In this document: in pieces, positions 1-56,664 of the stretch | Layout of the letters: the number at the start of each line of letters is the position of its first letter | How positions within the stretch are numbered: position 1 is the first letter of the stretch | Assembly (NCBI GenBank): GCA_021234155.1 | Contig: JAJEKV010000005.1 | Location: forward strand, 15,908,826 to 15,972,825 | Source of the DNA: Isoetes taiwanensis | Taxonomy: Eukaryota > Streptophyta > Lycopodiopsida > Isoetales > Isoetaceae | Direction: 5' to 3' | Length of the DNA: 64,000 bases | The notes under the pieces: model-generated | The model's input: the letters and a program-made list of their open reading frames with translations, nothing else | What the model was told of the DNA's origin: nothing | Database searches by the model: none | Program-made: the position numbers and the translations under genes

Positions 1-2027
1 AGGTATTACCAAAATAATGGTGCTTGAGAGCAAATTCCAGGGCTGTCTGAGCCTCTAGAAAGCCTCAAACTACCAATGAAGCAAAATGAAGTGATTATTA
101 GAGTTGCAGTTGAAGTGTTTTGATGTCGAACAAGTCACACCATGTCAGATCTTCGGTTTGAATTTAATAGAGCAAAATTTGAGCAGAGTAGAGCAAGATA
201 ATATCGAAGTATCAAATGCGCCAGGATCACAGAGGTCTATCTCTGAGGGGACGTGTTGATTAAATCTGTATTGCTGGCTTAAGAACTGTCCTTGGCCGAG
301 TGATTTAAGGCCAAATTAGAGCAATTCTTCCCGGATCAAGTGCCACAGAGGATCCCCAAGGTCTCGGAAAAGGTTCAGGAGGTAATTTCGGGTGAAAATT
401 GGCGGGCTTCAATCAGATTTAGGCACGAATTGGCGGGATTTAGCGCTTTCCCCATTTTTAGGGTTCTTGAAAAACTCTTAGTATATATATCCCACAGGCT
501 AAAATGGTCTTGGCAGCTCCTGTATATAAGGAACAATGCCGACGTGTTTAATAAACTTGCGTGCCACGCAGAGGGGACTCCCAGCCCGTGTCTGGCCCCC
601 ACGCCCTGCTGCCACGTGGAAATGGGAATGAAAATGGGGGTGATGTGGAAACGATGTAGAGATGATGTGGAAATAGATAGGGTAGATAGGCTAGAATAGG
701 TTTTTTATTTTTTTATGGCACGCATCCCAAGAATCCAAATTTGAAGGCCTTTACAAGGGTTTTTTCAAAATTTAAAAAAGCCAAATTAGCTCTTTTTTGC
801 TAGGCTTTCCATCTAGAGAAATTTTAGGTTGAGCTGAAACACTTCAATTTTTGCCCTTTTGACCCATGGTCAATGAATACTGCAACTTGGGGATGGTGAA
901 AAAATCATGGGAAAAAGATGGGGAAAAGGTGTAAATAGGCTATAATAGGGTTTAGGAAGATAAAATGAGGGTGAAATAGAGTTTTCTTGCCTTTTTCGGT
1001 TTTCAAGATCATTAGGGGGCAATTCTCAAATGAAGGTAGGACCAATAAAAAATGGGTATGAGAAAAGAACTCAAAGGTGGAAAAAATGGTGAAAGAAAGG
1101 TTTTTGAAGGCTCTTGGGATATAAAAAGGTGGATATAAGATGAATGGAATGAGGAAAAGATGGGTACCTCTGTAGCACTTGATTTCATCTCACATTGCTC
1201 TGCAAGAGTGTCCGGCATATACGCATATCCGAGCAACACATGCTGATCTTAGATGCTCTGCGGCACCGCTGCATCAATTGCTGGCATCGCCAATGGTTGC
1301 ACGTCTCGCATCCTACATTTTGCAAGTCTCTACCGTCAGAGAATCCCTTACAGGACAAGGGATTTGAGAGCCTACTACCAGGGTTTTTCCTCCCATGTGG
1401 GGGTTTTTTCATCCCAGTAGTAGGGACACATTGTATAGTGGCATTTGTCTTTTTGGTGTGGTTTTATCTGCTTTGTGTACTGCATGTACCGTCTCATAGG
1501 TCAAGTTTGGCCTCCGCGGACGTTAAAATATACTTCCTTCCTTCCTTCCTTCCTTCTAAAGCTCAAATCATACCTCATAGTGAAAATAAGTTTGCTCAAA
1601 ACCTAAGGGTCTTCCAAACTTCTATAGGGGTCTTCCAAACTTCAAGGCTAGAATAAGAGCAAATTTCACTTCCAAGATGGCATTCTCATGTGACCTCAAA
1701 ACTACTAATGCAACTCAAGTAAGCTCCATAAGGTTGAACTTTGGTAAAATGCCTTGTGGCTCCTTGATAAACGTGCTATAGCCTTTGCCTGGTCTTCAAA
1801 TCAAAGGGAAAATGTTAAACAAATGGGAATGTATCTAGAAAGGTGCTTTACCTCAAGGAAAAGACTAGGCTATAAAATGAGATCCCCAATGCCTTCCAAT
1901 CTTGGTCAAATGTCTTCCAAACTCTAATGGGATCATAATAGCCTGGAACTTTTCCTTAGAGGAAATATAAATGAAACAAAAGGTTTGATACATAGATGCT
2001 GGTCCATGTTGCCAAAAATGGGCAACA
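1..2027 (-). mobile_element. 3' LTR of gypsy element G1, cut by window edge
   Basis: This stretch is a direct repeat of 13,111-14,875, so the two are the LTRs of one element. The LTR begins on the minus strand at 2,027 with TGTTGCCC, immediately after a purine-rich run (CCTTTAAGGAGA) that would serve as polypurine tract. The last part of the LTR lies beyond position 1. A minus-strand TATA-like run is at 481-490. The copy differs from the 5' LTR by a roughly 360-bp insertion, a missing tandem unit, and scattered substitutions and short indels. Confidence 0.88.
1198..1556. repeat. ~360-bp insertion in the G1 3' LTR ending in (TTCC)n
   Basis: The 5' LTR copy reads straight through this site (near 14,336), so these bases are an insertion, or a deletion in the other copy. 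The segment ends in five to six TTCC units at 1,533-1,556. I see no tRNA-like A and B boxes, no protein similarity and no clear target duplication. It could be a short retroelement with a simple-sequence tail. Confidence 0.6.
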
Positions 2028-2695
2028 TCTCCTTAAAGGAAAGAATAGGCTGGTCCCCTCAGCCTAACAGATGTAAACTTAGACTGAGGATCTTCAGATA
2101 ATGCAAAAATTTACTGGTGCAGGTGACAGAATGATGTAGAATGATGAAAGAGAGTGGTATGAGTATGAGATGAACTCTGCTATGGTGGAAATGTGGCGCG
2201 GAGCATTGTAGGGAATGAAAATAAAAGAATAGAAGGCTGAAATGGTAGGTAAGGCAACTTATAGGTAGATGGAAATGGAAGAGAAAAGAATGAACCTGCA
2301 TATGACAGTAAAATCAAAGTTAGCATGAGTGCCAAGCAAGATATGGAAAATTATATATGGATAGCACTCTAGAACTCCAATGAAGAAGCAAGGTCTCATG
2401 AAGAATAAGCCAGTTTAAAAGGCAGATGAAATGTGTTGACAAATGGCCCTGTCATGACAACATAGAACTCATTAGTAGGTAATAATCAAAGTCTTATCCC
2501 CTGTGGCCACATCCCTGCAGCTAAACAGAAACAAACACTATTAAACCTCAAAGGAAATATGCAAATCAAAAGAAATTTTAAAACCTCAACTTTGAAGTTA
2601 TAAACTAACCTACTCTAAGCTAGAACAAATGTTTATATAGAAGTGAACAGGCTTAAGCAGGCATGCTGAGGCCAATATCTTTTAAGGTGTTGAAT
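2028..2695 (-). other. G1 3' interior, no coding signal
   Basis: This lies between the G1 3' LTR and the foldback insertion. It should be the untranslated stretch between integrase and the polypurine tract. I see no conserved domain on either strand. Confidence 0.55.
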
Positions 2696-2905
2696 CCAAC
2701 ATATAAAAATTAAATCCCCCAACACATAACAACCAACACATAACAACCATTGACATTAACAACCAACACATAACTACCATTGACATTAATTAACACAACC
2801 ATTGGGTCCAACACATTTAAATTAAAATCCCCCTTAAACCCCCTTTGGTTTGGGTGCATATTCACACGGGGGGTGACTCCAGGCAACGAGAGCTGTTGGA
2901 TAGGC
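2696..2905 (+). repeat. Left arm of the FB inverted repeat
   Basis: The arm is the imperfect reverse complement of 5,388-5,583. Landmarks are the AAATTAAATCCCCC block and the GGTTTGGGTGCATATTCAC block next to a run of G. It also holds a short internal repeat built on ACACATAACAACCA and CATTGACATTAA. Confidence 0.75.
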
Positions 2906-3092
2906 ATATTCACCCCTTATTCCTTAATCTACACCGTACGTAAAGTTCCTCGTTTGTGGGGTATGCAAGTACAAAATTTGCTATACTGTATAACAAGATT
3001 CGCAAAATACTATAAGATTTCAAGCGGAATACTATATGATGTTGATTTCGTACGTGCAAAATACAATTATGAGGGCTTTCTGCCAATGTCTT

Positions 3093-5255: not shown

Positions 5256-5387
5256 GCAGGTGGTTGTGCTCAGTTGGATCGGTTTGTCCACTGGGGTTAT
5301 AATCCTGTCTTTGCATTTATGTTGCTCTGGTTTCTAGTTGGTGAATAAAGCTTGACGTCCTTCAAAAAAAAAAAAAATTATGAGGGC

Positions 5388-5583
5388 TCTCGCTGCCTTA
5401 CGTCACCCCCCGTGTGAATATGCACCCAAACCAAAGGGGGTTTAAGGGGGATTTTAATTTAAATGTGTTGGACCCAATGGTTGTGTTAATTAATGTCAAT
5501 GGTAGTTATGTGTTGGTTGTTAATGTCAATGGTTGTTATGTGTTGGTTGTTATGTGTTGGGGGATTTAATTTTTATATGTTGG
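5388..5583 (-). repeat. Right arm of the FB inverted repeat
   Basis: This is the partner of 2,696-2,905 and reads GTGAATATGCACCCAAACC in the plus direction. It is also present in inverted orientation at 24,640-24,840, and in diverged form on both sides of the copy at 39,480-39,935. Confidence 0.75.
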
Positions 5584-5683
5584 ATGTTAATGGTTTGTGT
5601 TGCAAAAAAAATTTTTTGGCCCCTTCGGGGCCTTAGGGACGTCACCTCCCCCCCGGGTGTGACAAAATTTTTAGAATTCAAAC

Positions 5684-5714
<31 letters not shown>

Positions 5715-6790
5715 AGAATTCATTTGAGGCTTTAATCACCTGTAGCTTTTGAATTTCATCACAATAAAACAAATAGAACATAAGTAAAAGTTACCATAAA
5801 GATAGAGCAGATTGATCCCATTATTCTGAAAGTCATAAAGTTTGCAACACCCATACACAAACATTTTTCAACTGGAATTTAACAGCAGCCTTTGGCCTCC
5901 ATGGATTCTTGTGGTGGGAAACCAAAGTGGGAAATTTTCTGCTTGTTAGCACAAGGATCTAGAAGCCTTGGAATTTGCTTAATAACTGCCTCAAAATCTA
6001 AAAATGCATGGCAATTTTTTGCAAGCTTCATTTGGAATGAGCCATAAAACAATATCCAATAGCACAATCCTGTATTAATCAGCTGGTAGGATGTGAAGGC
6101 CTACCAAACCCGGCCGAAAAATTGCTGTTTTAGCATAGATAACTACTTAACCAAACATATCTATATTATACATTATCAAAAAGATCTCGGGAGAGAGCTT
6201 CCCAACATAATAAAAATCATCTCAAACAGAGCTATGGATCAAAAGTTATGATAAGAAATGTGTTGCCCGTGGGGAAACTGCACTAAATGTTCCCTTCAAG
6301 CCCTTCATGTGCCCAACCCGGCCAAAAATTGCTGTTTTAGCATAGATAAGCAACCAAACATATCAATATTGTACATTATCAAAAAGATCTCGGAGAGAGC
6401 TTTCCAACGCAATAAAAATCATCTGAAACAGAGCTCTGGATCAAAAGTTATGATATGAAATGTGTTTAGGCGGGAGCGCACTACATGTGCCCTTCAAGCC
6501 CTTCATGCGCCCTTCAAGCCCTTCATGTGCCCATTATGCACCACATACACAAAAAGAGGGCTTTTGTTGTGAGCCATTGGTTGTTGACCATTATGCACCA
6601 CACACACAAAAAAAAGACTTTTGTTGTGAGCCATTGGTTGTTGACCATTGAAAAAAAAAGGCTAAAATCAATGGCTCAGAAATGGTGCACTCTAGATGTA
6701 CGCATTAGTACATCCATTTGAATACATCACGAAATCATAGGAAAACCTTAGTGAAAAGCGTACAAAAACACAAAGAAAACCCCCTGTTAT
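5584..6790. repeat. FB outer segment with internal duplications
   Basis: The segment starts with a GGCCCCTTCGGGGCC palindrome at 5,618-5,632 and a poly(A) run at 5,682-5,711. A block of about 180 bp is repeated at 6,110-6,300 and 6,310-6,465 (landmark TGCTGTTTTAGCATAGATAA). A short unit containing GAGCCATTGGTTGTTGACCA is repeated at about 6,530-6,650. Equivalent blocks are in the inverted copy at 23,850-24,560. There are no coding domains. Small reading frames here come from the repeats. Confidence 0.6.
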
Positions 6791-6794
6791 TATG

Positions 6795-8824
6795 CTACAT
6801 ATTAGGGTTTGGCAACTCTAAACCTGTACCAAGATCTGTCAATCTATAAGATGAGAAGCCAGCCTCTCCTAAAATCTGATAGGGACCCTCCCAGGGGTTT
6901 TCAAACTTGGAAAGCTTTCCTTCATCTGCAGCATTCCACTTCAAAACTAATTCCATAGGTGCAAACTTATCTTGTAGTTTGTGAGCAGCCTTGAAAGCTG
7001 CTGCACTCTTAGCCTTCTTCAGCAAGTTGTAATTCTCTGCAACAAACCTTTCTTCATCCAATTTTAATAGAACTTCATACCTGTGCTTCAAGGCTTCAGA
7101 AAACTCCAACTCAAGCTTGAGTGCCGTCCTTAAAGAGGGTATCTCTAACTCGACTGGAATGACAGCCTCTACTCCATATACTAAACTAAAAGGTGAGGCA
7201 TTAGTAGCTGCTTTAGAGGTAATTCTATGAGCCCAAAGAGCATCATATAATTTCAAGTGCCAATCCCTTTGGTTTTGGCAAATTGTTTTCTGCAAAATAC
7301 CCTTAAGCACTTTGTTAGTAGACTCAGCTTGGCCATTTCCTTGAGGATAATAGGCTGAGCTTTTCACATGCTTGATCTTGAGGCTTGAAACAAGAAAATT
7401 AATCACCTCATTAATAAAAGTAGAGCCTCTATCAGTCAAAATTTTAAAGGGAATGCCAAACCTAGAGCAAATATTCTCATGCAAAAATCTGGCAGTAGTA
7501 TGGGCATTTGCTTTCCTTAAGGGTGCTGCTTCTGACCACTTAGTGAACAGGTCTGTAGCTACAACAATGTATTCATGTTTGAAATTGAGGATGGAGGATT
7601 GATAGGGCCAACATAGTCCAATCCCCAAACTTGAAATGGACCAGGGGAGACAATTTCTGTAAGAGGAGCAGGATGCAAGATTCTTTTGCTAAAGATCTGG
7701 CATTGATGACAAGTCTTTATAACATCATAACAATCTTTAAATAAATGAGGCCAAAAGTAACCAGACCTCAATATTTTCTTGGCAGTTGTGTCTGCTGCAA
7801 AATGACCACCACAAACACCTTTGTGATTTTCAGCAAGTACCAGGGCAGCTTCATCTTCATCAACACATCTTAAGAGTACACCATCCCTGTTTACCTTGCA
7901 CAAAATGTCACCAACCAAGGAGTAAGTCAAACATTTTAACTTAAACTTGTAAGCTTGGCTTTTTGAAAATTCAGAAGGTATCACTTGATACTGAAGGAAC
8001 CTCCTAATAGGTTGTTGCCAATCTTGAGCTTGTATAGTTGACAAGTCCTGCTCATTTACAACAAGGTTAGTCATTTCTTCTTCTTGTACAACCTCCTCAT
8101 GTTCAAAGTAGGCAGCAGGTAAGTATAAACTCGGATTGTTCAATACATGAATGACCTTTACCTTTAAATCATAAGATTGGAGCCTACAAGCCCATCTATG
8201 AAGCTTGGGTTTTTCTAATTTCTTACCATACAAAAAAGGCATGGGGTTCTGCTGCATGTAGATAGTGGCTTGGGATTTTTGTAGAAGATGTCCATGTCTC
8301 TCTATCAAAAAGATGAGAGCAACAGCACTCCTTTCTACCTTAGCATACTTCTCTTCAGTTTGAGACCATTGTTTGCTTGCAAAAGCAATGGGGTGCCTAT
8401 CCTGCAAAATGGCAACTCCAGCAGCTTTTTTAGTAATGGTTATATAAACTTTAAATGGTAATGAAAGGTCTGGAGTTTTTAAAAGTGTAGAATGGCAAAT
8501 AGCCTCTATGATCTGCAAAAAAGCCTTTTCACACTCATCAGTCCAAACAACAGGCCTATATATACATTCTCTTTTACTAACTTGGCCTATTCTAGTCAAT
8601 TTAGAGATGGGACTAATAAGGTGAGAGAAATTAGGCACATACACCCTTAAGAAAGAAGTCATTCCCATAAATCCCTTGACCTCTTTAATTGTCCTGGGTG
8701 TTTGAAGCTTTTTTAGAGCTATGATCTTCTCTTGACTACTTGAAGGCCTTGATGCCAAAAGATGCGGATTTAAAACCTCATGACCTAAAATGAACATTTG
8801 GCCTTTAGATGCCAAAAGATGCAC
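6795..8824 (-). pseudogene. G1 pol: RT connection, RNase H and integrase
   Basis: Reading from 8,824 downwards: RT thumb/connection (LKKLQTPRTIKEVKGFMG); the gypsy RNase H region (PFKVYITITKKAAGVAILQ and FASKQWSQTEEKYAKVE); the integrase zinc finger with its CHQCQ pair; then the integrase core. The three acidic core residues are recognisable in GLDYVGPI, TDRGSTFIN and GNGQAESTNK. A one-base frameshift near 7,600 separates the first acidic residue from the rest. The frame ends at 6,795 next to the FB insertion, and no chromodomain is visible. Dead copy. Confidence 0.9.
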
Positions 8825-12343: not shown

Positions 12344-14875
12344 TGTTAGCCTAAAACCTGGAACTTTTAGTCTAACCTCAAAGGAAGTGTAAACAAAGTG
12401 GTTAGAACCTCCAGATCACTTAGGGTGATCAATCCTTGTTATGTGAAACAAGAAAAGTCATTTTGAAGTGCTGGTTTTTTCAAAATCACTAGAGTCCCTG
12501 AAACTGAAAAAACTGTCAGAGCAAAATCTGGCCTTGCAGACACACCTTGTGGGATTTTTGAGATCTGATTGGTGGTATAGATGGTCAACAAGCAGAGGAA
12601 ACTTGTGGTGAAAATTTGATTGGATTTGAATAAAGGAAGGTCAAGCAAATCTAGGTCAAAGTCGGGTCAAAAAGTTGGCCAGTGCCAACACAGAGAGCCA
12701 AAAATTTGCAGATGGAGTCTGATAGGGAATTTTGGGTTGGGATCTGTGCAGACAACTTCAGAATAGCCTCTAGATCACGTGCATAAGGTTTAACTAGCAA
12801 AAAGATGTTTTAATTTTGTTGTAAGTAGCCAAAGCTTCAAGAAAAAGACAAACTCTGTAACAGTTATGAAGAAAAATCTTTTTATATGTTTTCTCTGGAT
12901 GTATAGGCTTCTAGGCTTTTTATGAGGATGAAATGCAACTACCTGAAGGGGATATAACTTGGAGCAAATATTTTGGCTTTGTATTTAGTTTTTAGCTTTA
13001 ACAAACAATGCAAGGTTATAAAGGATGAATGAATAATGATGACAATAATTTTCCAGGCAAAGACTATGTATTATAGCAAGATGATACCGAAAAATCTAAT
13101 AGTATCAGAAGGTATTACCAAAATAATGGTGCTTGAGAGCAAATTCCAGGGCTGTCTGAGCCTCTAGAAAGCCTCAAACTACCAATGAAGCAAAATGAAG
13201 TGATTATTAGAGTTGCAGTTGAAGTGTTTTGATGTCGAACAAGTCACGCCATGTCGATCTTCGGGCCAACGAGAATAGAGAGCAAAATTTGAGCAGAGTA
13301 GAGCAAGATAATATCGAAGTATCAAATGCGCCAGGGTCACAGAGGTCTATCTCTGAGGGGACGTGTTGATTAAATCTGTATTGCTGGCTTAAGAACTGTC
13401 CTTCCCTAAAAGCTAGCTCGGCCGAGTGATTTAAGGCCAAATTAGAGCAATTCTTCCCGAATCAAGTGCCACAGAGGATCCCCAAGGTCTCGGAAAAGGT
13501 TCAGGAGGTAATTTCGGGTGAAAATTGGCGGCTTCAATCGATTTAGGCACCTAATTGGCGGATTTAGCAGCTTTCCCCATTTTTAGGGTTAAGTCGAAAA
13601 AATCTTGACCGCTATATATCCCACAAGGCTAAAATGGTCTTGGCAGCTCCCGTATATAAGGAACAATGCCGGCGTGTTTAATAAACTTGCGTTACCGTAG
13701 GGGACTCCCGGCCAGAATGTCGCCCCCCACCCTCTACCGCCACGTGGAAATGGGAATGAAAATGGGGTGATGTGGAAACGATGTAGAGATGATGTGGAAA
13801 TAGATAGGGTAGATAGGCTAGAATAGGTTTTTTATTTTTTTGTGGCACGCATCCCAAGAGTCCAAATTTGAAGGCCTTTACAAGGGTTTTTTCAAAATTT
13901 AAAAAAGCCAAATTAGCTCTTTTTTGCTAGGCTTTCCATCTAGAGAAATTTTAGGTTGAGCTGAAACACTTCAATTTTTGCCCTTTTGACCCATGGTCAA
14001 TGAATACTGCAACTTGGGGATGGTGAAAAAATCATGGGAAAAAGATGGGGAAAAGGTGTAAATAGGCTATAATAGGGTTTAGGAAGATAAAATGAGGGTG
14101 AAAATAGAGTTTTCTTGCCTTTTTCGGTTTTCAAGATCATTAGGGGGCAATTCTCAAATGAAGGTAGGACCAATAAAAAATGGGTAGTGGAATGATGAGA
14201 AAAGGACTCAAAGGTGGAAAATGGTGAAAGAAAGGTTTTTGAAGGCTCTTGGGATGGATATAAGATGAATGGAATGAGGAAAAGATGGGTACCTCTGTAG
14301 CACTTGATTTCATCTCACATTGTTTCCAAAGCTCAAATCATACCTCATAGTGAAAATAAGTTTGCTCAAAACCTAAGGGTCTTCCAAACTTCTATAGGGG
14401 TCTTCCAAACTTCAAGGCTCATAGTGAAAATAAGTTTGCTCAAAACCTAAGGGTCTTCCAAACTTCTATAGGGGTCTTCCAAACTTCAAGGCTAGAATAA
14501 GAGCAAATTTCACTTCCAAGATGGCATTCTCATGTGTGTGACCTCAAAACTACTAATGCAACTCAAGTAAGCTCCATAAGGTTGAACTTTGGTAAAATGC
14601 CTTATGGCTCCTTGATAAACGTGCTATAGCCTTTGCCTGGTCTTCAAATCAAAGGGAACATGTTAAACAAATGGGAATGTGTCTAGAAAGGTGCTTTACC
14701 TCAAGGAAAAGACTAGGCTATAAAATGAGATCCCCAATGCCTTCCAATCTTGGTCAAATGTCTTCCAAACTCTAATGGGATCACAATAGCCTGGAACTTT
14801 TTCTTAGAGGAAATATAAATGAAACAAAAGGTTTAATACATAGATGCTGGTCCATGTTGCCAAAAATGGGCAACA
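12344..14875 (-). mobile_element. 5' LTR of gypsy element G1 (2.5 kb)
   Basis: The LTR runs from TGTTGCCC (minus strand, 14,875) to GGCTAACA (12,344), so its ends form the usual TGTT/AACA inverted pair. The part from 13,111 to 14,875 repeats at 1-2,027. Beyond 14,875 the sequence changes abruptly to the RT of another gypsy element, which marks the insertion site (first flanking bases GACCT). Its partner target duplication must lie left of the window. Confidence 0.9.
14344..14491. repeat. 74-bp tandem duplication in the G1 5' LTR
   Basis: Two adjacent near-identical 74-bp units begin with CTCATAGTG at 14,344 and 14,418. The other LTR has one copy (near 1,573-1,650). Each unit has an inner repeat, GGGTCTTCCAAACTTC twice. 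Confidence 0.9.
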
Positions 14876-15827
14876 GACCTAAAAAACTCCTCACTTCTGC
14901 CACATTCTTTGGAGCTGGCCAATCAACTACTGCTTCGATCTTTGTGGGGTCGGTGGAGATCCCTTCTGCTGATATCACGTGGCCCAAGTACTCCACTCTT
15001 TCAGTAGCAAAGTGGCATTTGGAGAGCTTCCCATACAACCGATGCCGTCTCAACTTTTCCAATACTCTTCTCAAATGCTGACAATGATATTCAATGGACT
15101 TGCTGTAGACTAGAATGTCGTCGAAGAAAACAATGACAAACTCATCTAAGAACTCCCTGAAGATGTCGTTCATGAGACGCATGAAAGTTGCCGGGGCGTT
15201 CGATAAGCCAAAGGGCATTACGGTAAACTCAAAGTGCCCATACCGCGTTCTGAAGGCGGTCTTATGGATATCTTCTTCTTTTATCCTTATTTGATGGTAC
15301 CCTGACCTTAAGTCAATCTTAGAGAAAACTTTCGCTCCTTGGAGCTGGTCCATCAAATCATCTGCCCTTGGCAGAGCATACTTATTCTTTATCGTCTGCT
15401 TGTTAAGCTGGCGATAATCTATGCACATTCTTAAGCTCCCGTCTTTCTTCTTCACGAAGAGTATGGGTGCTCCAAAAGGAGATGCACTTGCTCTAATAAA
15501 TCCAAGGTCAAGCAATTCCTGCAGCTGCTTCTTAAGCTCAATCAACTCCGGGGTGCTCATCCTATAAGGTGCCTTGCTGGTAGGCTTAGCATCTGGAGCT
15601 AGTGTGATTTCACACTCTATACCCCTATAAGGTGGTAGCTGACGGATTTGATCCAAAAATACATCATTGAACTCTCTAATGAGCCTTGCTACTTGCTTAG
15701 CCAACTGATTCCCACTTAAGTCACTTCCCTTCTCTTTAGCTGGTTCAATTGCCTCTAACCTCAGGATATAATCCACCTTATTTCTTTCTATACTTTTCCT
15801 TAGCTTCTTCAAAGAAATACACTGCAT
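14876..15827 (-). pseudogene. G2 reverse transcriptase, cut by G1 insertion
   Basis: An open gypsy RT with all core motifs: [63 protein letters not shown], and the catalytic [11 protein letters not shown] with both aspartates intact. It continues through [10 protein letters not shown] and VRSFLG and then stops where G1 begins. RNase H and integrase of G2 must lie on the far side of G1, outside the window. The sequence resembles chromovirus (Del/Tekay-type) RTs, but the lineage is my reading of motifs only. Confidence 0.92.
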
Positions 15828-15853
15828 GGGAGAAGCTACCTTCTTACCTTTTA

Positions 15854-16162
15854 CTATGAATCTGGTGCCGTCGGTGCCGTCATGGAAATCTCATTGCGGT
15901 CGCAGTCAATCATCGCTTTAGCTGGCTTTAGGAACTCCATTCCTACTATAAGGTCATACCTTCCAATATCCATGACCTCTGCCCCCATCGGCCACTTGCT
16001 TCCACTAAGGTCTATATCAAACGTGATCCTCCTCCCCTTAGTGTGGCGAATGACACCATTTGCCATGCTAACTAGCCTCGGCTTAGACTTCAAAACTTTA
16101 TTCTTCATTAGGGCAGCCAGCCTAGGAGAGGCAAAGTTATGAGAGCTACCTGTATCTATCAA
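15854..16162 (-). pseudogene. G2 aspartic protease
   Basis: LIDTGSSHNFASPRL carries the retropepsin active-site DTG, followed by the flap region and MDIGRYDLIVGMEFL, the conserved ILG-type segment before the C-terminus. It is offset by one frame from the gag end (16,165), and a stop at 15,854 separates it from RT. It would process the Gag-Pol polyprotein in an active element. Confidence 0.88.
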
Positions 16163-16164
16163 GA

Positions 16165-17436
16165 CTAGGATGGACTGCTATCTATGATTCCCTCAGCCGC
16201 AATGACTGTGGATTGATTTTCAACATCATCTGACTCAATAGCTACACAAATGTTGCACTCACCCTCTATGAAGCCTTGGGCTTCCTGCTGGTCGTCTTCT
16301 TCGTTGTCTCCTTCGGTTGGCAAATTCCAATCTGCAAGTTCTGCCAAAGCTGCCTGCATGACGAATGGACAATCGTGTATTCAGTGCCCTGGCTGGAAAT
16401 ACCTAAAACATAGCTTCTTCTCGATATATTCCTGCCTCTTTTCCTTGGGCATGCTGTCTAGAAGGCGCTTCAGCGAACCGCCCCTTGCTCCATTTTGTGG
16501 CTTACGATCCCCAAAGGCCTTTCCCTGAACTTTCCTTTGCTGGTGCCCTCCGGTTGGCGTAGTTGCCGATTGCTTATTCTGATACTGCCCTTGGTACTGT
16601 CCTGCTGATTTACCTTTGAAGGCGAACTGTTTCTCCCTTGGGGTTGCTGGTGCTTCTTCCAAACTTATAGCTTTATCCTCGGCTTCCACTGTCTTTGGGT
16701 TGATTGCTCGGACTAGCCTTTTGATATTGCTGTTCAATCCCTCAATGTATCCGTCAACCGCTTGCCTTTCAGAAATTCCGGGAACATGGAGCCTGAGCCG
16801 CATGAATTCCTCTGTGTACTTGGCTACTGACAAGGTACCTTGGTTCAACCTGTAGAATTGCTGGATCTGCCTGCTAGTATGTGATCTTGGCACATAATGT
16901 TTGCGAAAGGCCTTGCTGAAGATCTTGAATCTGCAACTGTTTCTTTTCAGCTTATTGGACTTCGCATAGCCTTTCCACCAAATTCTGGCTGCTCCTATTA
17001 AGTTTGCTGTAGCAACCTTCCCTATATCTTTGTCCTTCATGCCATAAGAATTGCCAAACTCTTCCATCTCATCAAGCCAAGCTTCCGCCTCCATGCCTGA
17101 CCTGTCTTTCCCTGAAAACTGACCCAACTTCCTAGTCTTTCATACATTGCTCATAGCGCTGTCAACTTTCTTCTGATAGTCATCTGTCCTCCTTGCCCTG
17201 GCTCTTATCTGTGATGTATTGGACTCACTCTCTGAGCTAGAACTGTCTTGGCTACCAGAAGTGTCTGATGAACTGGAGCTGGATGGTGTTGGGGTCCTTC
17301 GGTTTCTCCTTTTTCTCTTTCTGTCCCAGACATTTCCCTGATTGCCTTCCCCTTCTGGTTGTGGAACCTCCTCAATGCCTTGCTGAGGTAGTGGTGGAGG
17401 AGGTGGTGGTGCAGGTCCATGTTCTTGGGCGTTCAT
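16165..17436 (-). pseudogene. G2 gag with two nonsense codons
   Basis: One frame runs from ATG at 17,436 to 16,165, interrupted by TGA near 17,140 and TGA near 16,380. It has a proline-rich and serine-rich N-terminus, then a retrotransposon gag domain (EAWLDEMEEFGNSYGM, NLIGAARIWWKGYAKSN, YRLNQGTLSVAKYTEEF). A nucleocapsid finger follows, reading CFRYFQPGH then stop then IHDC. Restoring C for Y and W for the stop would give a perfect CX2CX4HX4C, and both differences are G-to-A changes on the coding strand. Confidence 0.87.
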
Positions 17437-17844: not shown

Positions 17845-19341
17845 TCATCGATGGCCCTTTGTCAACTTGAAGAAATTCTTGACGTCCCTAAGCCGAAGGC
17901 CTTTGCCGAGGTTGCGCAAGATGTTCCTGGTTGATCCTCCTTCGAGTGCTCGGGCCATTTCCGGTGTCGGGAGTTCTGGTGTGGTTGCCGCTACTACTGA
18001 CAATGTTGCGTCCCTGAGGTGGCCTCTAGTGAAGTCGAGGCAGTAGAGCGCCACGGATATCTTGAAGAGAACGATGTGATCCGCATGGCTGTATATCTTG
18101 GAGTGATGTCCGAAGCCAGAGAGTGCTATGAGAAGCGCCACGGACTCTTCCCCTCTTGGGCTGAACTCCTTGTGAAAGACTATCATCTGCCCTTGACTGA
18201 GGACTGAGAGGTAGTAGCGGAGCGCCTTACCCTTGCCTATGCTTTGTGATCCTGTGCCCTTCCTTTGAGCTGCCCCGCCGTAGACATCTACTGCCAAGTG
18301 GTCTTCATGATCTCTCCACATGGTAGTTGCGTTCTCCAGGTTGATGCTGCTGGATGCTTCCCGCATGCTCCTGGAACGAACTGTCCGGCTAGAGCTTGGG
18401 CCTCTTCCTGGTTTGTACAACCTGCTTTATATTTCTTGGAACTCCTCCTCTGGGATGATGGGTTCCTGTTGTCGATAGATCTCCCTTATCTACTGATAAG
18501 CTGCTATATCTGACATTGTCTCCCTGGCGTAGGAGTGCCGCTCTGCTAACTCCCTTGGAATTTCCTGGTAGGAGTAGTCGATGAGGTCGGTGTTCTGCTC
18601 CTTTGCCATCAAGCCTAATAGCTCGTCGATCCTAAGCCCTTCTTCTTGGCAGTAAGGTAGGTTGAGGATGTCGTTTGCCAAGATGTATTCCTCTCCGTCG
18701 ATGACTATTGGTGATAAGGTTGTGATGCCGATTGGTGGCTCATAGGCTCGCCTGATGTCGTTATCATGCCTGGCTATGTGCCTCTCGATCCTCATTGCCT
18801 CTCTGCTTTCCCAATCCGGGTTTTCTTCCCCTAGCTGCTCGTAGTCTTGCTCGATCTGTAGTGTTGGTGTCCCTGATGTCCTGCCATGGTACTCGTACTC
18901 CGAGGAGTCTAGCTCAAGGATGTGGCTTTGGTCCCTTTGAGTGTTGAGTGGTGCTAGGTCTAAAGGCTGAATGGAAGGTTCTCCCACCCTATTGACTGAC
19001 TTATACTTATCTATGCCTATTATGCCTGCAGGTCATGTAGTCGGGCATGGTTCTAGTCCTACCCCACAGCTGGTTCTTGCCCTTGGATCCTCCCATCTCT
19101 CTTCCTAAAGCTTGGCTAAGTATCTCTAGGGATACCCAATTTCCTCCCCTAGGGGGTAAGCTAACTTCGCAGGGTAGGATCTGTTGATCATATTGGCAAA
19201 TGATATCAGTATAGAAGGGTGTTCTGGTCAATGTTGCATGAAGATCAAACAAATGGTGAACACCTGGAAGACTTGATCAGCAGGGAAGTCATGGATGTGG
19301 TTGGCAGCATCATACCATCTAACAAAGTTGCTAGGCGCCAT
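17845..19341 (-). pseudogene. ORF-X: unrecognised extra protein of G2
   Basis: From ATG at 19,341 (MAPSNFVRWYDAANHIHDFP) to a stop at 17,845 the minus strand reads as one protein of about 490 residues if two frameshifts (near 19,240 and 19,010) and two stops (TAG near 18,497, TAA near 18,440) are bridged. The middle is acidic and well-behaved (HGRTSGTPTLQIEQDYEQ, NLPYCQEEGLRIDELLGLM). The last third is basic-hydrophobic and ends NILRNLGKGLRLRDVKNFFK. I recognise no domain. A TATA box lies 94 bases upstream. It lies between PBS and gag, in the same strand as G2, where Ogre-type elements can have an extra ORF. Real coding ancestry is likely; function unknown. Confidence 0.6.
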
Positions 19342-19446: not shown

Positions 19447-19610
19447 GACTATGGTGGTTTCGTGCACAAGGGTTCTTGATGGGAGAGACTTTTGTTCTAA
19501 GGCTATGGGTCTCCAAATGAACTACCATGAAGTGCAAATTTAAGCAAAACAAAGCAACAAACATTGTTGGGTCTAATTTGGCTAATCTAGGTCAAAAAGG
19601 GTCGACCCGA

Positions 19611-19875
19611 GTGAATCCGCACGAAATCAGTCTGCATTGCGAACGCAGGGTCGATTGGCGCAGTCTCACCCGGTTGGGCTGATTTGGCTCATAACTTAGC
19701 ATTTCTAGGAGTTGCAAGATACTAATATGCCTAATTGGATCAATTCTATCCTAGCTAGCAACTTATTTCAAGCAAAATGATCATCTAGAAGTGGAATTTC
19801 AAGGCAACCGGGTGAATCCGCGCGAAATGGGTCTGCATTGCGAACGCAGGGTCGATTGGCACGGTCTTACCCAGG
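19611..19875. repeat. Two ~64-bp direct repeats between ORF-X and H3-like frame
   Basis: The units at 19,611-19,674 and 19,812-19,875 share GTGAATCCGC and the 20-mer CTGCATTGCGAACGCAGGGT. That string holds a small hairpin (CTGC...GCAG, TGCG-AA-CGCA). They lie about 200 bp apart in otherwise non-coding sequence. Confidence 0.85.
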
Positions 19876-20110: not shown

Positions 20111-21264
20111 CTAGGGCCTCTCTTTGCGGATCCTCCGCGCCAAATGCAGGTCTTTGGGCATAACAGTTACCCGCTTGGCGTGGATGGTGCAAAGGTTCCC
20201 CTCCTCAAAGAGCTGGATCAGCTCTGCTTCTGCGGCTTCTTGCAGGGCCCGGGTGGGTAGAGGGGTGACCCTATAATCAGTCCGGAACTCTTGCATTACT
20301 TCGCGAAGGAGGCGTTCGAAGGGCGCCTTCCTTATCAGGAGATTAGTACACTGCTAAAGGTGTCTAATCTCCCGAAACACCCGCGCGTGCCGAGAGTTAG
20401 GCCCATGATGTTTCTTCTTGGGCTTCTCCGGTCGTGTAGGTGGTGGCTTCGGCTGACTCTTTGGCCGCCCTCCTTCCACGAACTTCTCTACATTCTGCTT
20501 ACAGTACCAATCATTATACCTCGTCCAGCGACAGAGGTACTCCTGGTACACCTTCATTTTGCGCTTGAATTCGCGATCCTGCTTGAGCGCGAATTCACGC
20601 TCACCCACCTTCTGTTTCTTAACTACCTTGGGTGGCTTGGGCCACTTCGGGTAGGGTGGGCGTGCGTTGGGGTCTGAGGTTTTCCCAACGTCTTGCTCCT
20701 CCTCCTCCTCTGCATTCTCCTCCTCTTCTTCCTCCTCCTTCGCCTCTTCGTCCTCGAGGGGTCGAGATTCTTCAATCGTGACTGTCCCACGAGGCCTATC
20801 CCTCCTCGTCTTCGTCCTCCTCTCCTTCTTGAGTAGCTCTCTCTGTCGCTTCTTCCTGGCCGTCGTTTCTTCGGGCCACTCCGCTACTTTATCCTTCCCC
20901 TTCTTCTTCTTGCTAGAAGAAGCTGTTGCCTGCTGGTCCGGATGGGCCTGGGTCTGATGCTGCTGCTGCTGCCCGGTCTCCTCCTCCCGGCGCTCTTCCT
21001 CCTGGTGCTCCACCTCCTGGTCGGATAGGGGCCCAAGGTGGTGGGTTTCGTCAGTGCGCTGGGTCTCCATGGATGATGAGCTACTCTGTGGCTCCTCCTG
21101 TGATGCGTGGAAGGTCTCGCCGGTAGAGGACGACGCCTCGTCTCTGGCTTCGGCCGTAGGTGCATTGGGATTTGCTTGCCATGGCCACCTGCTGCTGCTG
21201 CTGCCACCATCGAAGGTGTCCGCCTTGGGCTAGTCTTCCTGTAGGTCTGCTTGGTTCGTGCCAT
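20111..21264 (-). pseudogene. Histone H3-like protein with long charged insert, in G2
   Basis: ATG at 21,264 begins MARTKQTYRKTSP, close to the canonical H3 tail. After a frameshift near 21,225 an open frame gives about 270 residues of low-complexity, strongly charged sequence (poly-Glu, Lys/Arg-rich, proline-rich). Then KKKHHGPNSRHARVFREIRH corresponds to the H3 segment leading into the alpha-N helix. A TAG and a one-base frameshift near 20,350 interrupt it. The rest is an unbroken histone fold: [64 protein letters not shown], stop at 20,111. Loop 1 has the length of ordinary H3, not the longer CENH3 loop. It lies between the PBS and gag of a gypsy element. It is broken here, so not functional as read. 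Confidence 0.85.
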
Positions 21265-21803: not shown

Positions 21804-21815
21804 GCTCTGATACCA
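21804..21815 (-). other. G2 primer binding site, initiator tRNA-Met type
   Basis: Minus-strand TGGTATCAGAGC is the standard plant PBS complementary to the 3' end of initiator tRNA-Met. It sits one base from the LTR end, which fixes both the LTR boundary and the element orientation. Gag starts about 4.4 kb downstream, unusually far. Confidence 0.95.
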
Positions 21816-21816
21816 T

Positions 21817-23459
21817 TGTGACACTTCCTACTAAATATACGGCCCCCAGCCGTACACTCCGTAGGAAATCCCCCATCTGGTCCTCCGACCGCACGGGCCC
21901 TTCGTCTATCCCGCACTCTGGGAACCCCGTAGTGCGAGAAAGGGACAGGAAGGTGTCTTGCGCGCCCTTCCCCTATGGGCTCCTATCACAACGGAAGCAT
22001 AAACATCGTCAGAACTAGCAATAGCAATACATCATGCTACCTCGAAGGGTAGCTCATCCACATATCCATAGCTACAAAGAACATAATCATATGCCATAAA
22101 ACATGAGAGCTCCTACCCGTGGCTCCGACTCATAAGGAGGTAGACTGACTGGATAGGCCTCAAGATAGAGCAGACCGAATCATAACAATGGCGGGGCTGG
22201 CTATAGACAATGGCTAGGGTTGACCACTCCATCCGTCCCTCCTGTGCATACTTTGCAGATGAGCTAGATCAAGCTCTGGCATGACTCTAGCCTTCCGGAT
22301 ACGCAATCCCATGGCATCACCCATCGGGACTACTCCAGGTTGCATCTCCCTGGTCCGTAGAGGCAGGAAGGGTTGCATCCCCCCTTCCCGGGGTCTAGAG
22401 ACTCCACGGGCAGGTAGAGAATCGTGGCGACACACGATTCGTACCCGACTTACCCCCCAAAACAAGAGCCAAGCCAACACTTGCAACTCTTGAGAGGCAG
22501 GGCGACACCTTTGCCTCAGGAGGTGTCGGACCCATGCCCGGCCCACACGAAGTGACCGAACATAAGCCTAGCCCACTATGGGATCCTCCGTAGCCCCCGC
22601 TCGGCAGGGATCCTCCCTCCGCATTGTCTCGAGCCCCGTTGTATAGTGCTGAGTCACATCATAGCCTCCATAGCCCGGTGGGTTCCTATGCACAGGCCGC
22701 ATAATAATGGGAACTAAGGGGTCTAAACTAGGAGCATACTACTAAGTAAGGCTACTAGGTCTCTACCCCCCTTCCCAATACAAGAGGAGCAAATATGATC
22801 AACCATCATCACATCACATCATGGTAACATCATAAGAACATCTTAACCTAATCATACATATCTAACTTACAGTTAGGATTCCTTGATTAGGGTTCAAGAT
22901 GTTCGACAAGGGTTCTAGGATGGCTCTACTCTAGATACAACATACAGACCCATCTGGAGTGCTAACTTCCAGATGAACTACCATGACTCTACTCCACCTA
23001 CCTGCTCCAGAAGCACTTCCTCCCATCCCTGGCATCTCCATTGCTCCTTGACGTGGTCGAAGTCGTGCTCCCTCTATGATCATGCACACACTTCGGGGGC
23101 TGCTGCACCAGGCTATGCTACGACAAACGATGCTCGAAACGGGGGTTTCGAGCGCGTAGATGAGTGTTCAGGTGCTAGAGTCAGGAAAAGGGGTCTAGGG
23201 TTAGGGTTTGAGCCAATATAGGTTAGGGTCCACATGGGATGCCACGTGGCACCAATAGGATGGGGCCGTGTGGCGGCTGCCCAATAGGATAAGGCCATGT
23301 GGAAATGGGCCTTATCCTAAGGTTATCTAAGTTAATCAATTAACTTGGATATGTGCCCCTTGCCACTTCTAAGGTATACAAGGCTACATGGGTAGACTTG
23401 TATAGTGACGGTTCCAAGAATATACGTATTTATGGCGTATATTCCCCTGGAACGTCACA
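21817..23459 (-). mobile_element. 5' LTR of gypsy element G2 (1.64 kb)
   Basis: Boundaries come from the PBS on one side and from resumption of the copia reading frame on the other. The ends are TGTGACACTTCC and GGAACGTCACA, an inverted pair. Diverged relatives in the same orientation are at about 43,410-44,330 and 47,190-47,920 (shared landmarks GACAATGGCTAGGGT and the CGGGACTACTC region). The matching 3' LTR is outside the window. Confidence 0.9.
23405..23458. repeat. 54-bp near-palindrome at the outer end of the G2 LTR
   Basis: Outer arms GTGACG/CGTCAC, middle TTCCA/TGGAA and inner GAATATACG/CGTATATTC pair around a 9-base loop. It forms the first bases of the LTR in element orientation. 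Confidence 0.85.
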
Positions 23460-23721
23460 TAGGCTATGATGAGAGTTCAAAAGGATATAAGTTGTATGAA
23501 CCTGTCAAAAGAAAAATTATACTAAGCAGGGATGTTACTTTTGACGAGCATACACTTTATAAATACAGAGAAATGGAAAAACAAAAGGACATAGTGAATC
23601 CGAAGGGCAATGAAGGTACACAGTCAGTTAGTTTTGATGAGGATAAAGCTGAAAATATTACTGGAATAGAGCAGACTGAAATCATAGCGGATAGAGAGCA
23701 AGAAAATGAGCAGAATGAATA
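23460..23721 (+). pseudogene. Copia integrase C-terminus and linker
   Basis: The frame reads GYDESSKGYKLYEPVKRKII and LSRDVTFDEHTLY, the conserved C-terminal end of Ty1/copia integrases, then an acidic linker. Everything 5' of it was displaced by the G2 insertion at 23,459/23,460. At 23,721 the frame is interrupted by the FB element and resumes at about 25,006. Confidence 0.88.
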
Positions 23722-25005
23722 TGTAGCATAATAACGGGGGGTTTTCTTTGTGTTTTTGTACGCTTTTCACTAAGGTTTTCCTATGATTTCGTGATGTATT
23801 CAAATGGATGTACTAATGCGTACATCTAGAGTGCACCATTTCTGAGCCATTGATTTTAGCCTTTTTTTTTTCAATGGTCAACAACCAATGGCTCACAACA
23901 AAAGCCCTTCTTTTGTGCGTGTGGTGCATAATGGGCACATGAAGGGCCATTGATTTTAGCCTTTTTTTCCAATGGTCAACAACCAATGGCTCACAACAAA
24001 AGCCCTCTTTTTGTGTGTGTGGTGCATAATGGGCACATGAAGGGCTTGAAGTGCAGTTTCCCCGCCGGCAACACATTTCTTATCATAACTTTTGATCCAA
24101 AGCTCTGTTTGAGATGATTTTTATTGCGTTGGAAAGCTCTCTCCGAGATCTTTTTGATAGTGTATGATATGGATATGTTTGGTTAAGTTATCTATGCTAA
24201 AACAGAAATTTTTTCCGCCCAATGAAGCTTGCAAAAAATTACCATGCATTTTTAGATTTTGAGGCGGTTATTAAGCAAATTCCAAGGCTTCTTGATCCTT
24301 GTGCTAACAAGCAGAAAAGTTTCCCACTTTGGTTTCTCACCACAAGAATCCATGGAGGCCAAAGGCTGCTGTTAAATTCCAGTTGAAAAATGTTTGTGTA
24401 TGGGTGTTGCAAACTCTATGACTTTGGATCAATCTGCTCTATCTTTATGGTAACTTTTACTTATGTTCTATTTGTTTTATTGTGATCAAATTCAAAAGCT
24501 ACAGGTGATGAAAGCCTCAAATGAATTCTAGTTTTTTTCTGGTTTAAATTCTAAAATTTTTTTTTCACATCAAGGGTGGCGTCCCTAAGGCCCCGAAGGG
24601 GCCAAAAAAAATTTTTTGTGGCACAAACCATTAACATTCAACGTATAAAAATTAAATCCCCCAACACATAACAACCAACACATAACAACCATTGACATTA
24701 ACAACCAACACATAACTACCATTGACATTAATTAACACAACCGTTGGGTCCAACACATTTAAATTAAAATCCCCCTTAAACCCCCTTTGGTTTGGGTGCA
24801 TATTCACAGGGGGGGTGACGTAGGGCAGCGAGAGCCCTCATAATTGTATTTTGCACGTACGAAATCAACACTATATAGTATTCCGCTTGAAATCTTATAG
24901 TATTTTGCGAATCTTGTTATACATTATAGCAAATTGTATACTTGCATACCCCACAAATGAGGAACTTTACGTACGATGTAGATTAAGGAATAAGGGGTGT
25001 AGGAA
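23722..25005 (+). mobile_element. Foldback element FB copy 2, in the copia frame
   Basis: It starts TATGTAGCATAATAACGGGG and ends near GGGGTGTAGGA. The copia sequence AATGAA occurs on both sides, a candidate 6-bp target duplication, and removing the insert rejoins the frame as EQNEMNEGTQ. It contains two ~95-bp tandem units (23,855-24,035), the GGCCCCTTCGGGGCC block and one arm plus core of the inverted repeat. The second arm present in copy 1 is missing. It is inverted relative to copy 1. No coding capacity. Confidence 0.75.
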
Positions 25006-54550: not shown

Positions 54551-56664
54551 CTAAAATACTTGAATGCAGAGGCTTGTTGAACCGTCACCATATGATCTAA
54601 GGTCAGTAGACTTCACAATCGCACGACATAATGGGCATGTCCTTTCTCTTTCAAACCTAATAGCAGACCCAGCTAACAATTAAAACACTTCTAGTTCTTG
54701 CTATATAAACGTAAACGCAAAACAAATAATTTATCATACCATTCAGAGACACAATCTTCACAAAATAAATGTTTACAACGCAGCAATATTGGCGCATGCA
54801 TTTTTTCTTGACAAATTGCACATAAATCTCCAGCAGCAAGAACCTAAAAGAGAGAGGCACCAACATGAAGTGCTTTCAACGGCATGGCAAGGAACAATAC
54901 CTAACTGAAATCACTATTACTCTAAAAATATATTTAAGAGAAATGGACAGAAAATAAATGCAAGAATCAGCCACATACTATGTACAAGTTACACTATACC
55001 TCCTCTGAAGTGGCATACGCACCATACTGCACTTCCCTACAAGAAAGTACACGTAGCGATGCAATAAACATCTGGACCTGAATGAACAGTGGAACCAAGT
55101 ATAGAATTAGAACTTGAGCAACCCAAATAAACGGGAAATTCAAATTGAAATTCTTTGCAGATCTGCAATTTTGCACTCTTGCGGCCTTAAAATGATGCAT
55201 TAATAATGTGACAATGTTTTTACACTTAATAAACAAATAGTTAGTGACATCCAAGAACAAAGGTTTACCTTCTCAAACACAGATGTCAGTTTGAAAGTAA
55301 GGTATAATCCTGTTGTCAAAGAAGAGAAGAAGTTGCCATACTCTTTATTCAGGAAAAAGCGGTACCATACTGGTCCAGGTATAATCGCCCGATAAAGCAA
55401 TGAGATATACTCAACAAATGTCAATAATTGCGCCTGTCTCAGGAAACCATCAGGTCTTTAAAGTCAGTTCAACAACAATCAATCTTTAGAAATGTGCTAC
55501 CAACCTGGCGACGGAAGTTACGACCTCGAAAGTTCTTGTATGACAAAAGTAAACCGCATTTAGCAACCATTGCTGCCTGTCTTGCCATTGTATCTACATT
55601 AACATTTATAAATGTCTTAAGAGGGTTACATCTGAAAGTAGCATGGAAAGTTGATCTGTACCATTTAAAACAATCATAAAAATAGCCTCCCAAAATTTAG
55701 GTATTTTGTTTGGTGGAAGCCAAAGAAGGGGTCGCCATATAGCAGCAGCACTATACCACCAATAAACTCCTGCAATGTGGCACATCAGGATAGACCCAAT
55801 AGCTATGATTATGATTCTTTTCCTTTCTCCCTGCATCACAATAGTGCTCTCTTAATTAGAATGATGCATGAAAGAAAAGAACCATATATAGTAATTGTAA
55901 AAAGTACTACCTATCAATCTTATTCTCAAATGCAGGACGCTTTCTGTGAAAGCATGCTATCTTTTTTAATGATAATTGAGATAACCGCTTGAAATAGAAA
56001 ACACAGTACCTTCAGGGCTGTTTGCTTCTTTATAAAATCATTAGCTTTAATCATTACCGCAGTGACCCAAAACGTAATAAAGAGGCCTACAAACAAACCA
56101 GAGATTTATAAGAATAAGTACACTGCTAGATGGTCAAATCCATTGATTGTTGATTAAAGTACCTTGTAAATGCTGTCTTATGAATACCAGCAAAAGCAGA
56201 ATTGTAAAAGGCAAGACCTGCTCCAACCATCTCCCAATAGGCTGAAAATCATACCGTTGTGCTGTCGTCGCCCTATTATCAGTTCTATTATTCTGAGAAC
56301 TCTCGGCATTGTCATCAATCTCAGAAGACCTTGGCGAAAATGGCCTTGATCCATGTTCAACTGAAGGCACATGGATAGATTGAATGAAATTCCCAGATGA
56401 CTGTACGTTAGAATCGTTTTCAGGTACTCTGTCAGTTCCCTGATCATGATCCCCAATTATCCTTATGGCAACTTCTGCCCCAGTGCCAGTAAGCCCGTCG
56501 TTTTGTACAATAGCTACGGAGCTGGTGTCTAAACCTGAGTGATGAGATCTTCCTCTAACTAATCCTGATAACTCCAACAATGCCGATAGAGGTGCTGGAA
56601 GCAAGTTAATTGAAATTGTTCGGTACCTGTTTTGCATGTCGGATGTGGACCCCAGGTTTTCCAT
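54551..56664 (-). CDS. RNFT1/2-type RING membrane E3 ubiquitin ligase, 8 exons
   Basis: Exons in transcript order: 56,664-56,163; 56,086-56,010; 55,830-55,662; 55,593-55,505; 55,433-55,269; 55,077-55,000; 54,843-54,740; 54,656-54,551. All seven introns (68-191 bp) are GT-AG and all joins keep frame, giving 429 residues. Residues 1-145 are polar and Ser/Asn-rich. Several hydrophobic segments follow (about 146-180, 196-220 and 228-250, with more to 330). A C3HC4 RING is at 368-405 (C368, C371, C383, H385, C388, C391, C402, C405). The block [10 protein letters not shown] and the ending FGDGSTS-type tail (here [14 protein letters not shown]) match the plant family that includes Arabidopsis At5g01960. 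Animal RNFT1 is an ER-membrane E3 linked to protein quality control, so an ER role is an inference. The frame stays open 5' of this ATG to 56,758, so an upstream coding exon is possible. Confidence 0.93.

What the first reader, a model, noticed from the sequence alone, without database searches (positions are those of the whole stretch)
20111..21264. Histone H3 with a giant charged insert carried inside a gypsy retrotransposon
Seen: an H3 tail start (MARTKQTYRK), about 270 charged residues, then a full-length H3 fold ([14 protein letters not shown] to RRIRKERP) on the minus strand, between the initiator-Met PBS (21,804) and gag (17,436) of element G2. Known: retrotransposons can capture host genes, and plant chromoviruses target chromatin through integrase chromodomains. 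I know of no retroelement family that encodes a core histone. Inference: the element may use its own H3 to mark or bind chromatin, or it may be a passive capture. The tail and fold diverge from canonical H3 much more than host H3 genes do, which suggests long residence or an H3 variant ancestor.
Basis: partly seen in the sequence, partly recalled or inferred. Interest (0 to 1): 0.92.

Follow-up and report, generated by a model that had tools for sequence, protein, structure and literature searches.

The report
Plant retrotransposon lineage encoding histone H3
A family of plant jumping genes (Ty3/gypsy chromoviruses) carries its own version of histone H3, a protein that packages DNA, fused to an unknown or charged N-terminal part; the histone part sits at the same place in the copies examined and is kept almost unchanged by selection, so it probably does a job for the element.

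Summary
The H3 is real (PF00125 E=8.8e-26) and belongs to the retroelement. In this copy its frame is broken: the MARTKQT start and the charged insert lie in different frames, and a stop separates insert from fold. It is not a one-off. The window's own 1.66-Gb assembly gave 8,705 raw histone candidates; of 150 scored, 15 match H3 from profile position 2 (canonical host H3), 135 start later. I examined 20 of the 135, chosen by score and long frames. Each of the 20 has further G2-like parts beside H3, always in the window's order: LTR/primer site, H3 gene (ORF-A), unknown ORF-B, gag, RT; single parts are missing in some. One copy read to its integrase has a chromodomain. Among copies the fold has median dN/dS 0.049, like RT (0.065), so it is selected as protein. 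H3 captured by fungal hAT DNA transposons is published (PMC3538342, PMC6710886); my searches found none in a retroelement. Most likely ORF-A is a nucleosome-entering H3 fusion acting on the element's own chromatin. That function is untested.

The parts
21817..23459 (-). 5' LTR of G2 (TGTGAC...GTCACA), inserted next to a copia element
   Evidence: sequence; 69% identity over 691 bp to the LTR region of copy L032; LTR-PBS junction resembles that of 14 copies. Outer end inferred from termini only
21804..21815 (-). primer-binding site TGGTATCAGAGC (iMet; motif recalled)
   Evidence: exact TGGTATCAGAG upstream of H3 in 14 of 20 copies
20884..21264 (-). frame that begins with the H3 tail start MARTKQTYRKTS; different from the insert frame
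20357..21229 (-). charged insert frame (291 codons), ends in FREIRHL, partial H3 alpha-N
   Evidence: no significant Pfam family
20354..20356 (-). in-frame TAG between insert and fold
20111..20353 (-). histone H3 fold (80 codons + stop)
   Evidence: PF00125 E=8.8e-26; PDB H3; Foldseek: the 50 rows shown are nucleosome or H3-chaperone entries, best E=4.2e-6, rmsd about 6 A
17848..19341 (-). ORF-B, conserved unknown protein, broken here (pieces 19365-19231, 19276-19010, 19032-18493, 18426-17848)
   Evidence: the last two pieces match 15 of 20 copies by tblastn; no significant Pfam family
16384..17436 (-). gag, one in-frame stop at 17142-17140 and one at the zinc-knuckle-like end (16383-16381)
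   Evidence: PF03732 E=2.6e-16; zinc-knuckle reading by eye
15857..16177 (-). protease-like frame (LIDTGSSHNFASPRL), out of frame with gag and RT
   Evidence: identified by motif from memory, not by a search
14876..15890 (-). reverse transcriptase, cut off by the nested element G1
   Evidence: PF00078 E=1.4e-39; Ty3 RT 4ol8 E=6.1e-66

Best explanation
The window holds a decayed copy of a chromovirus (Ty3/gypsy) lineage that encodes its own histone H3 as the C-terminal domain of a roughly 410-460-aa protein (ORF-A), placed between the PBS and an unknown ORF-B ahead of gag-pol. SHOWN: conserved gene order in independent insertions; long open ORF-A frames; purifying selection on the fold as strong as on RT; retention of residues recalled as H3-H4, H3-H3' and DNA contacts; a chromodomain in the integrase of the one copy scanned for it. 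INFERRED: ORF-A pairs with host H4 and enters nucleosomes, so that its replaced tail (N-domain in the examined copies, charged insert in the window's subfamily) decorates the element's chromatin. It then either keeps silencing marks off the element, since an ARKST tail motif was not seen in the 110 residues before the fold, or serves as a dock for the element's integrase. I think anti-silencing somewhat more likely than docking. Odds of steps: protein function 0.9, nucleosome entry 0.6, anti-silencing 0.35, integration docking 0.25.
For: Of 20 examined copies, gag-like hits in 17, RT in 14, ORF-B pieces by tblastn in 15, exact PBS upstream in 14; the one copy without gag and RT hits (L033) has PBS and an ORF-B frame. 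Separate insertions: first 200 bases of the 20 stretches share no match in any pair. Frame through the fold of 400 aa or more in 15 of 20. Median dN/dS: fold 0.049 (54 of 190 pairs with 0.02<dS<1), RT 0.065 (28 of 28 pairs, 8 copies), ORF-A N-part 0.18 (19 of 105 pairs, 15 copies). 11 of 336 key-residue cells changed, 10 of them at K64, the other at R63. Chromodomain PF00385 E=6.3e-8 in L032. In the window, break density is similar in the H3 gene (2 in 1.15 kb) and gag-RT (4 in 2.56 kb).
Against: No expression, protein or chromatin data. The 20 copies come from the best-scoring histone hits and most were picked for long frames, so intactness and constraint are biased upward, and members without H3 were not sought. 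Five of 20 have shorter frames (139-352 aa). The window's own subfamily (MARTKQT start, no recognisable N-domain) is known from this one broken copy; the genome search for more did not complete. Its fold is no closer to the other copies (58-65%) than to host H3 (65%), so a separate capture in that subfamily is not excluded. dN/dS is pairwise Nei-Gojobori without a tree, and most fold pairs (136 of 190) were outside the dS range used. Seven of 20 copies keep an RKS motif before the fold, which weakens a simple 'no K9' story. L032 has no ORF-B left and L048 lacks its 3' part.
Confidence: 0.72

Rival explanations
1. Passive capture: an H3 gene hitch-hikes in the element with no function, amplified by copying.
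For: LTR elements do pick up host genes; the window copy is broken.
Against: Fold dN/dS 0.049 across copies; 15 of 20 with frames of 400 aa or more (a sample picked partly for frame length); multi-step changes in the window fold (10 versus 2.5 expected) with 16 of 16 key sites kept.
Confidence: 0.06
2. The H3 fold is kept not for nucleosomes but as a DNA/RNA-binding or particle-assembly module, for example compacting cDNA in the virus-like particle, with the N-domain and ORF-B as partners.
For: ORF-A is upstream of gag in the same element and has a long charged or Q/N-rich linker; N-domain and ORF-B show no known domain.
Against: Residues used in H3-H3' and H3-H4 contacts (C110, H113, R116, D123, L126; roles recalled) are kept in all 21 sequences compared, not expected if only DNA binding mattered.
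Confidence: 0.15
3. Integrase dock: the element marks its own or sister insertions with its H3 and its chromodomain integrase reads that H3.
For: L032 has both an integrase chromodomain and an H3; ARKSG or PRKSG motifs lie 53-60 residues before the fold in 6 of 20 copies and KRKST in a seventh.
Against: 13 of 20 copies, L032 among them, lack an RKS motif in the 110 residues before the fold.
Confidence: 0.2
4. Nested insertion: H3 entered this copy as a separate later insertion (DNA transposon or retrocopy).
For: H3 unit is GC-richer (57%) than its flanks (38-39%).
Against: No TIR+TSD pair around it (0 hits, also 0 in each of 10 shuffles, so this test has little power); same position in 20 other insertions.
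Confidence: 0.02

Closest known systems
H3L-carrying hAT DNA transposons of fungi (Pyrenophora tritici-repentis PMC3538342; Pseudocercospora fijiensis and relatives PMC6710886)
   Same: A mobile element carries and amplifies an H3 gene; the Pyrenophora element also has an ORF of unknown function
   Different: Class II hAT elements of fungi; in P. fijiensis the copies are RIP-inactivated. Here: class I chromovirus in a plant-like genome, H3 fused to other sequence, purifying selection across diverged subfamilies
Phalaenopsis Ty3/gypsy elements with an AlkB m6A-demethylase ORF (PMC9289625)
   Same: Plant gypsy lineage with an acquired host domain in an extra ORF, kept by the lineage
   Different: Different domain. 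Its screen of 121 angiosperm genomes names no histone domain in the main text (supplement not seen)
Plant chromoviruses (Ty3/gypsy with integrase chromodomain; lineage features recalled)
   Same: gag, RT, RNase H, integrase, chromodomain, iMet PBS
   Different: Two extra conserved genes, H3 fusion and ORF-B, ahead of gag
Marseillevirus / Medusavirus viral histones (recalled, no call)
   Same: Selfish element encodes core histone folds
   Different: dsDNA viruses with histone sets or fused doublets; here a single H3 in a retroelement

Membership tests
Core histone H3 | H3 histone fold matching PF00125 over the fold | tested here: met
   window 8.8e-26; three copies scanned 1e-41 to 1e-43
Core histone H3 | canonical N-terminal tail ([28 protein letters not shown]) contiguous with the fold | tested here: not met
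   tail replaced or interrupted in the window and in the 15 long-frame copies
Core histone H3 | forms nucleosomes with H4 | not testable with these tools
   only residue retention, 11 of 336 cells changed
Centromeric H3 (CENH3) | extended loop 1 between alpha-1 and alpha-2 (feature recalled) | tested here: not met
   window fold aligns to H3 without a gap; the 20 copies align over 94-95 residues of H3 as single segments without length change
Ty3/gypsy chromovirus | Ty3-type RT and gag | tested here: met
Ty3/gypsy chromovirus | integrase C-terminal chromodomain | tested here: met
   L032 PF00385 E=6.3e-8, 32.9 bits against cut-off 25.1, the one copy scanned; in the window copy integrase lies outside the window
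Ty3/gypsy chromovirus | paired LTRs and target-site duplication | tested here: inconclusive
   window 3' LTR lies off-window; 5' LTR similarity to L032 in 17 of the other 19 copies
Fungal hAT-H3L transduplication | hAT transposase and TIRs around H3 | tested here: not met
   no TIR+TSD around H3 in window; gag, RT and LTR instead. hAT transposase itself was not searched for

The most novel reading that the evidence does not exclude
A retrotransposon lineage builds nucleosomes with its own H3 fusion: the element-encoded H3 enters chromatin of element copies and either makes it refractory to silencing or creates a private mark read by the element's own chromodomain integrase, so mobile element and histone co-evolve as one system.
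Probability: 0.35. Interest if true: 0.97.

Novelty: new variant of a known kind. Interest (0 to 1): 0.92.

Why it matters
Core histones are usually host property. A chromovirus lineage, probably of high copy number, that keeps an H3 fusion under purifying selection would be a direct handle on how elements fight or exploit chromatin silencing, and gives natural chimeric H3s for testing what tail and fold can tolerate. It also warns that histone gene counts in large plant genomes can be inflated by transposons: 135 of the 150 best-scored PF00125 hits here do not match the start of the H3 profile, and the 20 of them that I examined are element-borne.

Tried and rejected
Nested DNA transposon carrying H3: no TIR+TSD. 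CENH3 capture: loop-1 length is canonical. Leader duplication around H3: 3 of 1000 shuffles reached the score, and so did 1 of 106 control stretches; left as a hint. Structure of an ORF-B piece alone: pLDDT 34, useless. Structure of the H3 fold: pLDDT 72; Foldseek rows shown are H3-containing entries but rmsd about 6 A. Gag in the protein database: 145 candidates, none at E<=0.001. IMG/VR contigs searched with P0059, the H3 fold and gag: none confirmed. GTDB contigs searched with the long-tailed database H3s (A2), not with the window: none. Tree of 198 H3 folds: window on a long branch (0.82), place unresolved, quick method only. CpG depletion by region: uninformative.

Errors made and corrected: one search read minus-strand loci on the wrong strand (superseded). 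One search had an off-by-one in host alignment and residue numbers (redone). One search's ORF-B set held one gag-pol frame (L032); without it dN/dS is 0.206 (11 of 55 pairs, 11 copies), and that set still holds L048, whose frame runs from ORF-B into protease-like sequence.

Full report
Observation. On the minus strand, 20353-20114 encodes an H3 fold (PF00125 E=8.8e-26; best PDB H3 chain E=3.5e-28). MARTKQTYRK begins at 21264. The charged frame 21229-20357 is in another frame, and a TAG at 20356-20354 divides it from the fold. So this copy cannot make the protein as one chain. Gag-PR-RT of the same element also carries breaks: two stops and two frame changes in 2.56 kb, against two breaks in 1.15 kb for the H3 gene. 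H3 seems to have decayed together with the element, not before it (inference from similar densities; the numbers are small).

Is the H3 part protein-constrained? The window fold differs from a plant H3 (P0041) at 29 of 80 positions. Of 3,000 neutral simulations to that divergence, 1 kept 16 of 16 key residues and 1 had as many multi-step changes (10 observed, 2.5 expected). Absence of stops alone is not telling (28% of simulations have none), and substitution similarity is only marginal (mean BLOSUM P=0.054, positive-score changes P=0.23). The key-site list is from memory and was not drawn up blind.

Element. LTR 23459-21817, PBS 21815-21804, H3, ORF-B pieces, gag, PR-like frame, RT to about 14876, where a second gypsy element (G1, LTR-like repeats 1-2027 and 13110-14875) interrupts. 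The 3' half of G2 is therefore not in the window. G2 itself lies next to a copia element.

Genome. The genome search answered once: the assembly has 1.658 Gb in 1,110 contigs; 8,705 first-look candidates for PF00125, 150 scored, all over the cut-off. The candidates may include other histones and fragments. Fifteen match from profile position 2; their folds (L001-L015) are canonical H3 in four variants. The other 135 start at profile positions 4-25; by my count of the table 130 of 135 have no stop inside the match and 36 lie in open frames of 400-494 aa.

Twenty of those 135 were fetched with about 10 kb each, chosen by score and most for long frames. Each has at least one other part of a G2-like element beside the H3 fold: gag in 17, RT in 14, ORF-B pieces by tblastn in 15, exact PBS upstream in 14. 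L033, without gag or RT hits, has PBS and an ORF-B frame. Where present the parts stand in the window's order. LTR similarity to L032 was found in 17 of the other 19 (in L038 only a displaced 363-bp piece; none in L041 and L044) and in the window (69% over 691 bp). The first 200 bases of the 20 stretches share no similarity in any pair, so they are separate insertions. PBS to ORF-A start is 613-779 bases in 10 measured copies, about 550 in the window.

ORF-A. In 15 of 20 the frame through the fold is 400 aa or longer; the other five are 139-352 aa (L041 is among the 15 but its first Met is late). The long frames read: short start (MPRFKLT..., MANTKSA..., MEEVKQVYKRK..., possibly eroded forms of MARTKQT..., inference), an N-domain alignable across subfamilies (8 copies, 32-79% identity to the first; no Pfam family in three copies scanned), a charged or Q/N-rich linker, an H3-tail remnant and the fold (PF00125 1e-41 to 1e-43 in those three). 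The window's insert found no tblastn match in the 20 copies.

Selection. Median pairwise dN/dS: fold 0.049 (54 of 190 pairs with 0.02<dS<1), RT 0.065 (28 of 28 pairs, 8 copies), ORF-A N-part 0.18 (19 of 105 pairs, 15 copies), ORF-B 0.21 (11 of 55 pairs, 11 copies). Folds are 84-89% identical to host H3, with saturated synonymous sites (pS 0.91). The window fold is 65% to host and 58-65% to the copies. Of 336 key-residue cells 11 differ: 10 at K64 and one at R63.

Chromovirus. L032 continues through RNase H, integrase zinc and core-like domains (rve scores below its cut-off) to a chromodomain (PF00385, E=6.3e-8, above its cut-off). So one copy has both an H3 and a domain class that elsewhere reads H3 tails. 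Seven of 20 copies have an RKS motif within 110 residues before the fold, L032 not among them; no ARKST was seen there.

Mechanism. I favour a nucleosome-entering H3 fusion whose replaced tail changes the chromatin of element copies (anti-silencing, or docking of the integrase). The fold's contact residues support nucleosome entry; nothing here shows it. Particle-level roles remain possible.

Literature. Searches (all in PMC open full text, listings seen) led to H3 captured by hAT DNA transposons in fungi (PMC3538342, passages seen; PMC6710886, abstract and passages seen) and to no retroelement with a histone. PMC9289625 (abstract, section 12 and passages seen) screened LTR elements of 121 angiosperms and names no histone domain in the main text. 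One further search failed twice. Subscription papers and preprints are not in that library, so an existing report could have been missed.

Host. The host H3 sequences, the iMet PBS motif and the element types suggest a land plant (inference); no tool named the species.

Noticed in passing
window 17848-19341 (minus) and loci L031-L050: ORF-B, a conserved protein of about 450-500 aa (e.g. MARPTLQQWYLDGEHWDPAVPFDLLH...) between H3 and gag, no Pfam family in two copies scanned, dN/dS about 0.2. Its role is unknown.
   Followed up: partly
proteins P0042, P0054, P0059, P0065, P0069, P0076, P0091 (database hits): Other H3 proteins, several apparently multi-copy (P0059: 41 member sequences), with an AKTK start, 259-319 residues before the fold and EIRHYQKK; 7 of the 240 fetched proteins. 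Architecture like the window's, source organism unknown. Possibly a second mobile long-tailed H3 family.
   Followed up: partly
L032, L048: Copies with deletions: L032 keeps H3, gag and RT but no ORF-B; L048 keeps H3, part of ORF-B and RT but no gag hit. L032 could show whether ORF-B is dispensable.
   Followed up: no
window 19607-19671 and 19808-19872: 201-bp spaced direct repeat (89%) in the AT-rich stretch between H3 and ORF-B, upstream of a TATA-like CTATAAAAAGG at about 19445; may be an internal promoter region.
   Followed up: partly
window 1-2027 and 13110-14875: LTR-like repeats of a second gypsy element (G1; gag PF03732, RNase H, RVT_3, integrase zinc domain) nested in G2.
   Followed up: partly
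window 23718-24999, 5369-6803 and 2694-3080: Repeat with two copies of about 1.1-1.4 kb in opposite orientation and a shorter third piece, 82-98% alike.
   Followed up: no
window 56134-56664 (minus): 176-aa open frame that by eye looks like part of a host gene with a membrane segment; not tested.
   Followed up: no
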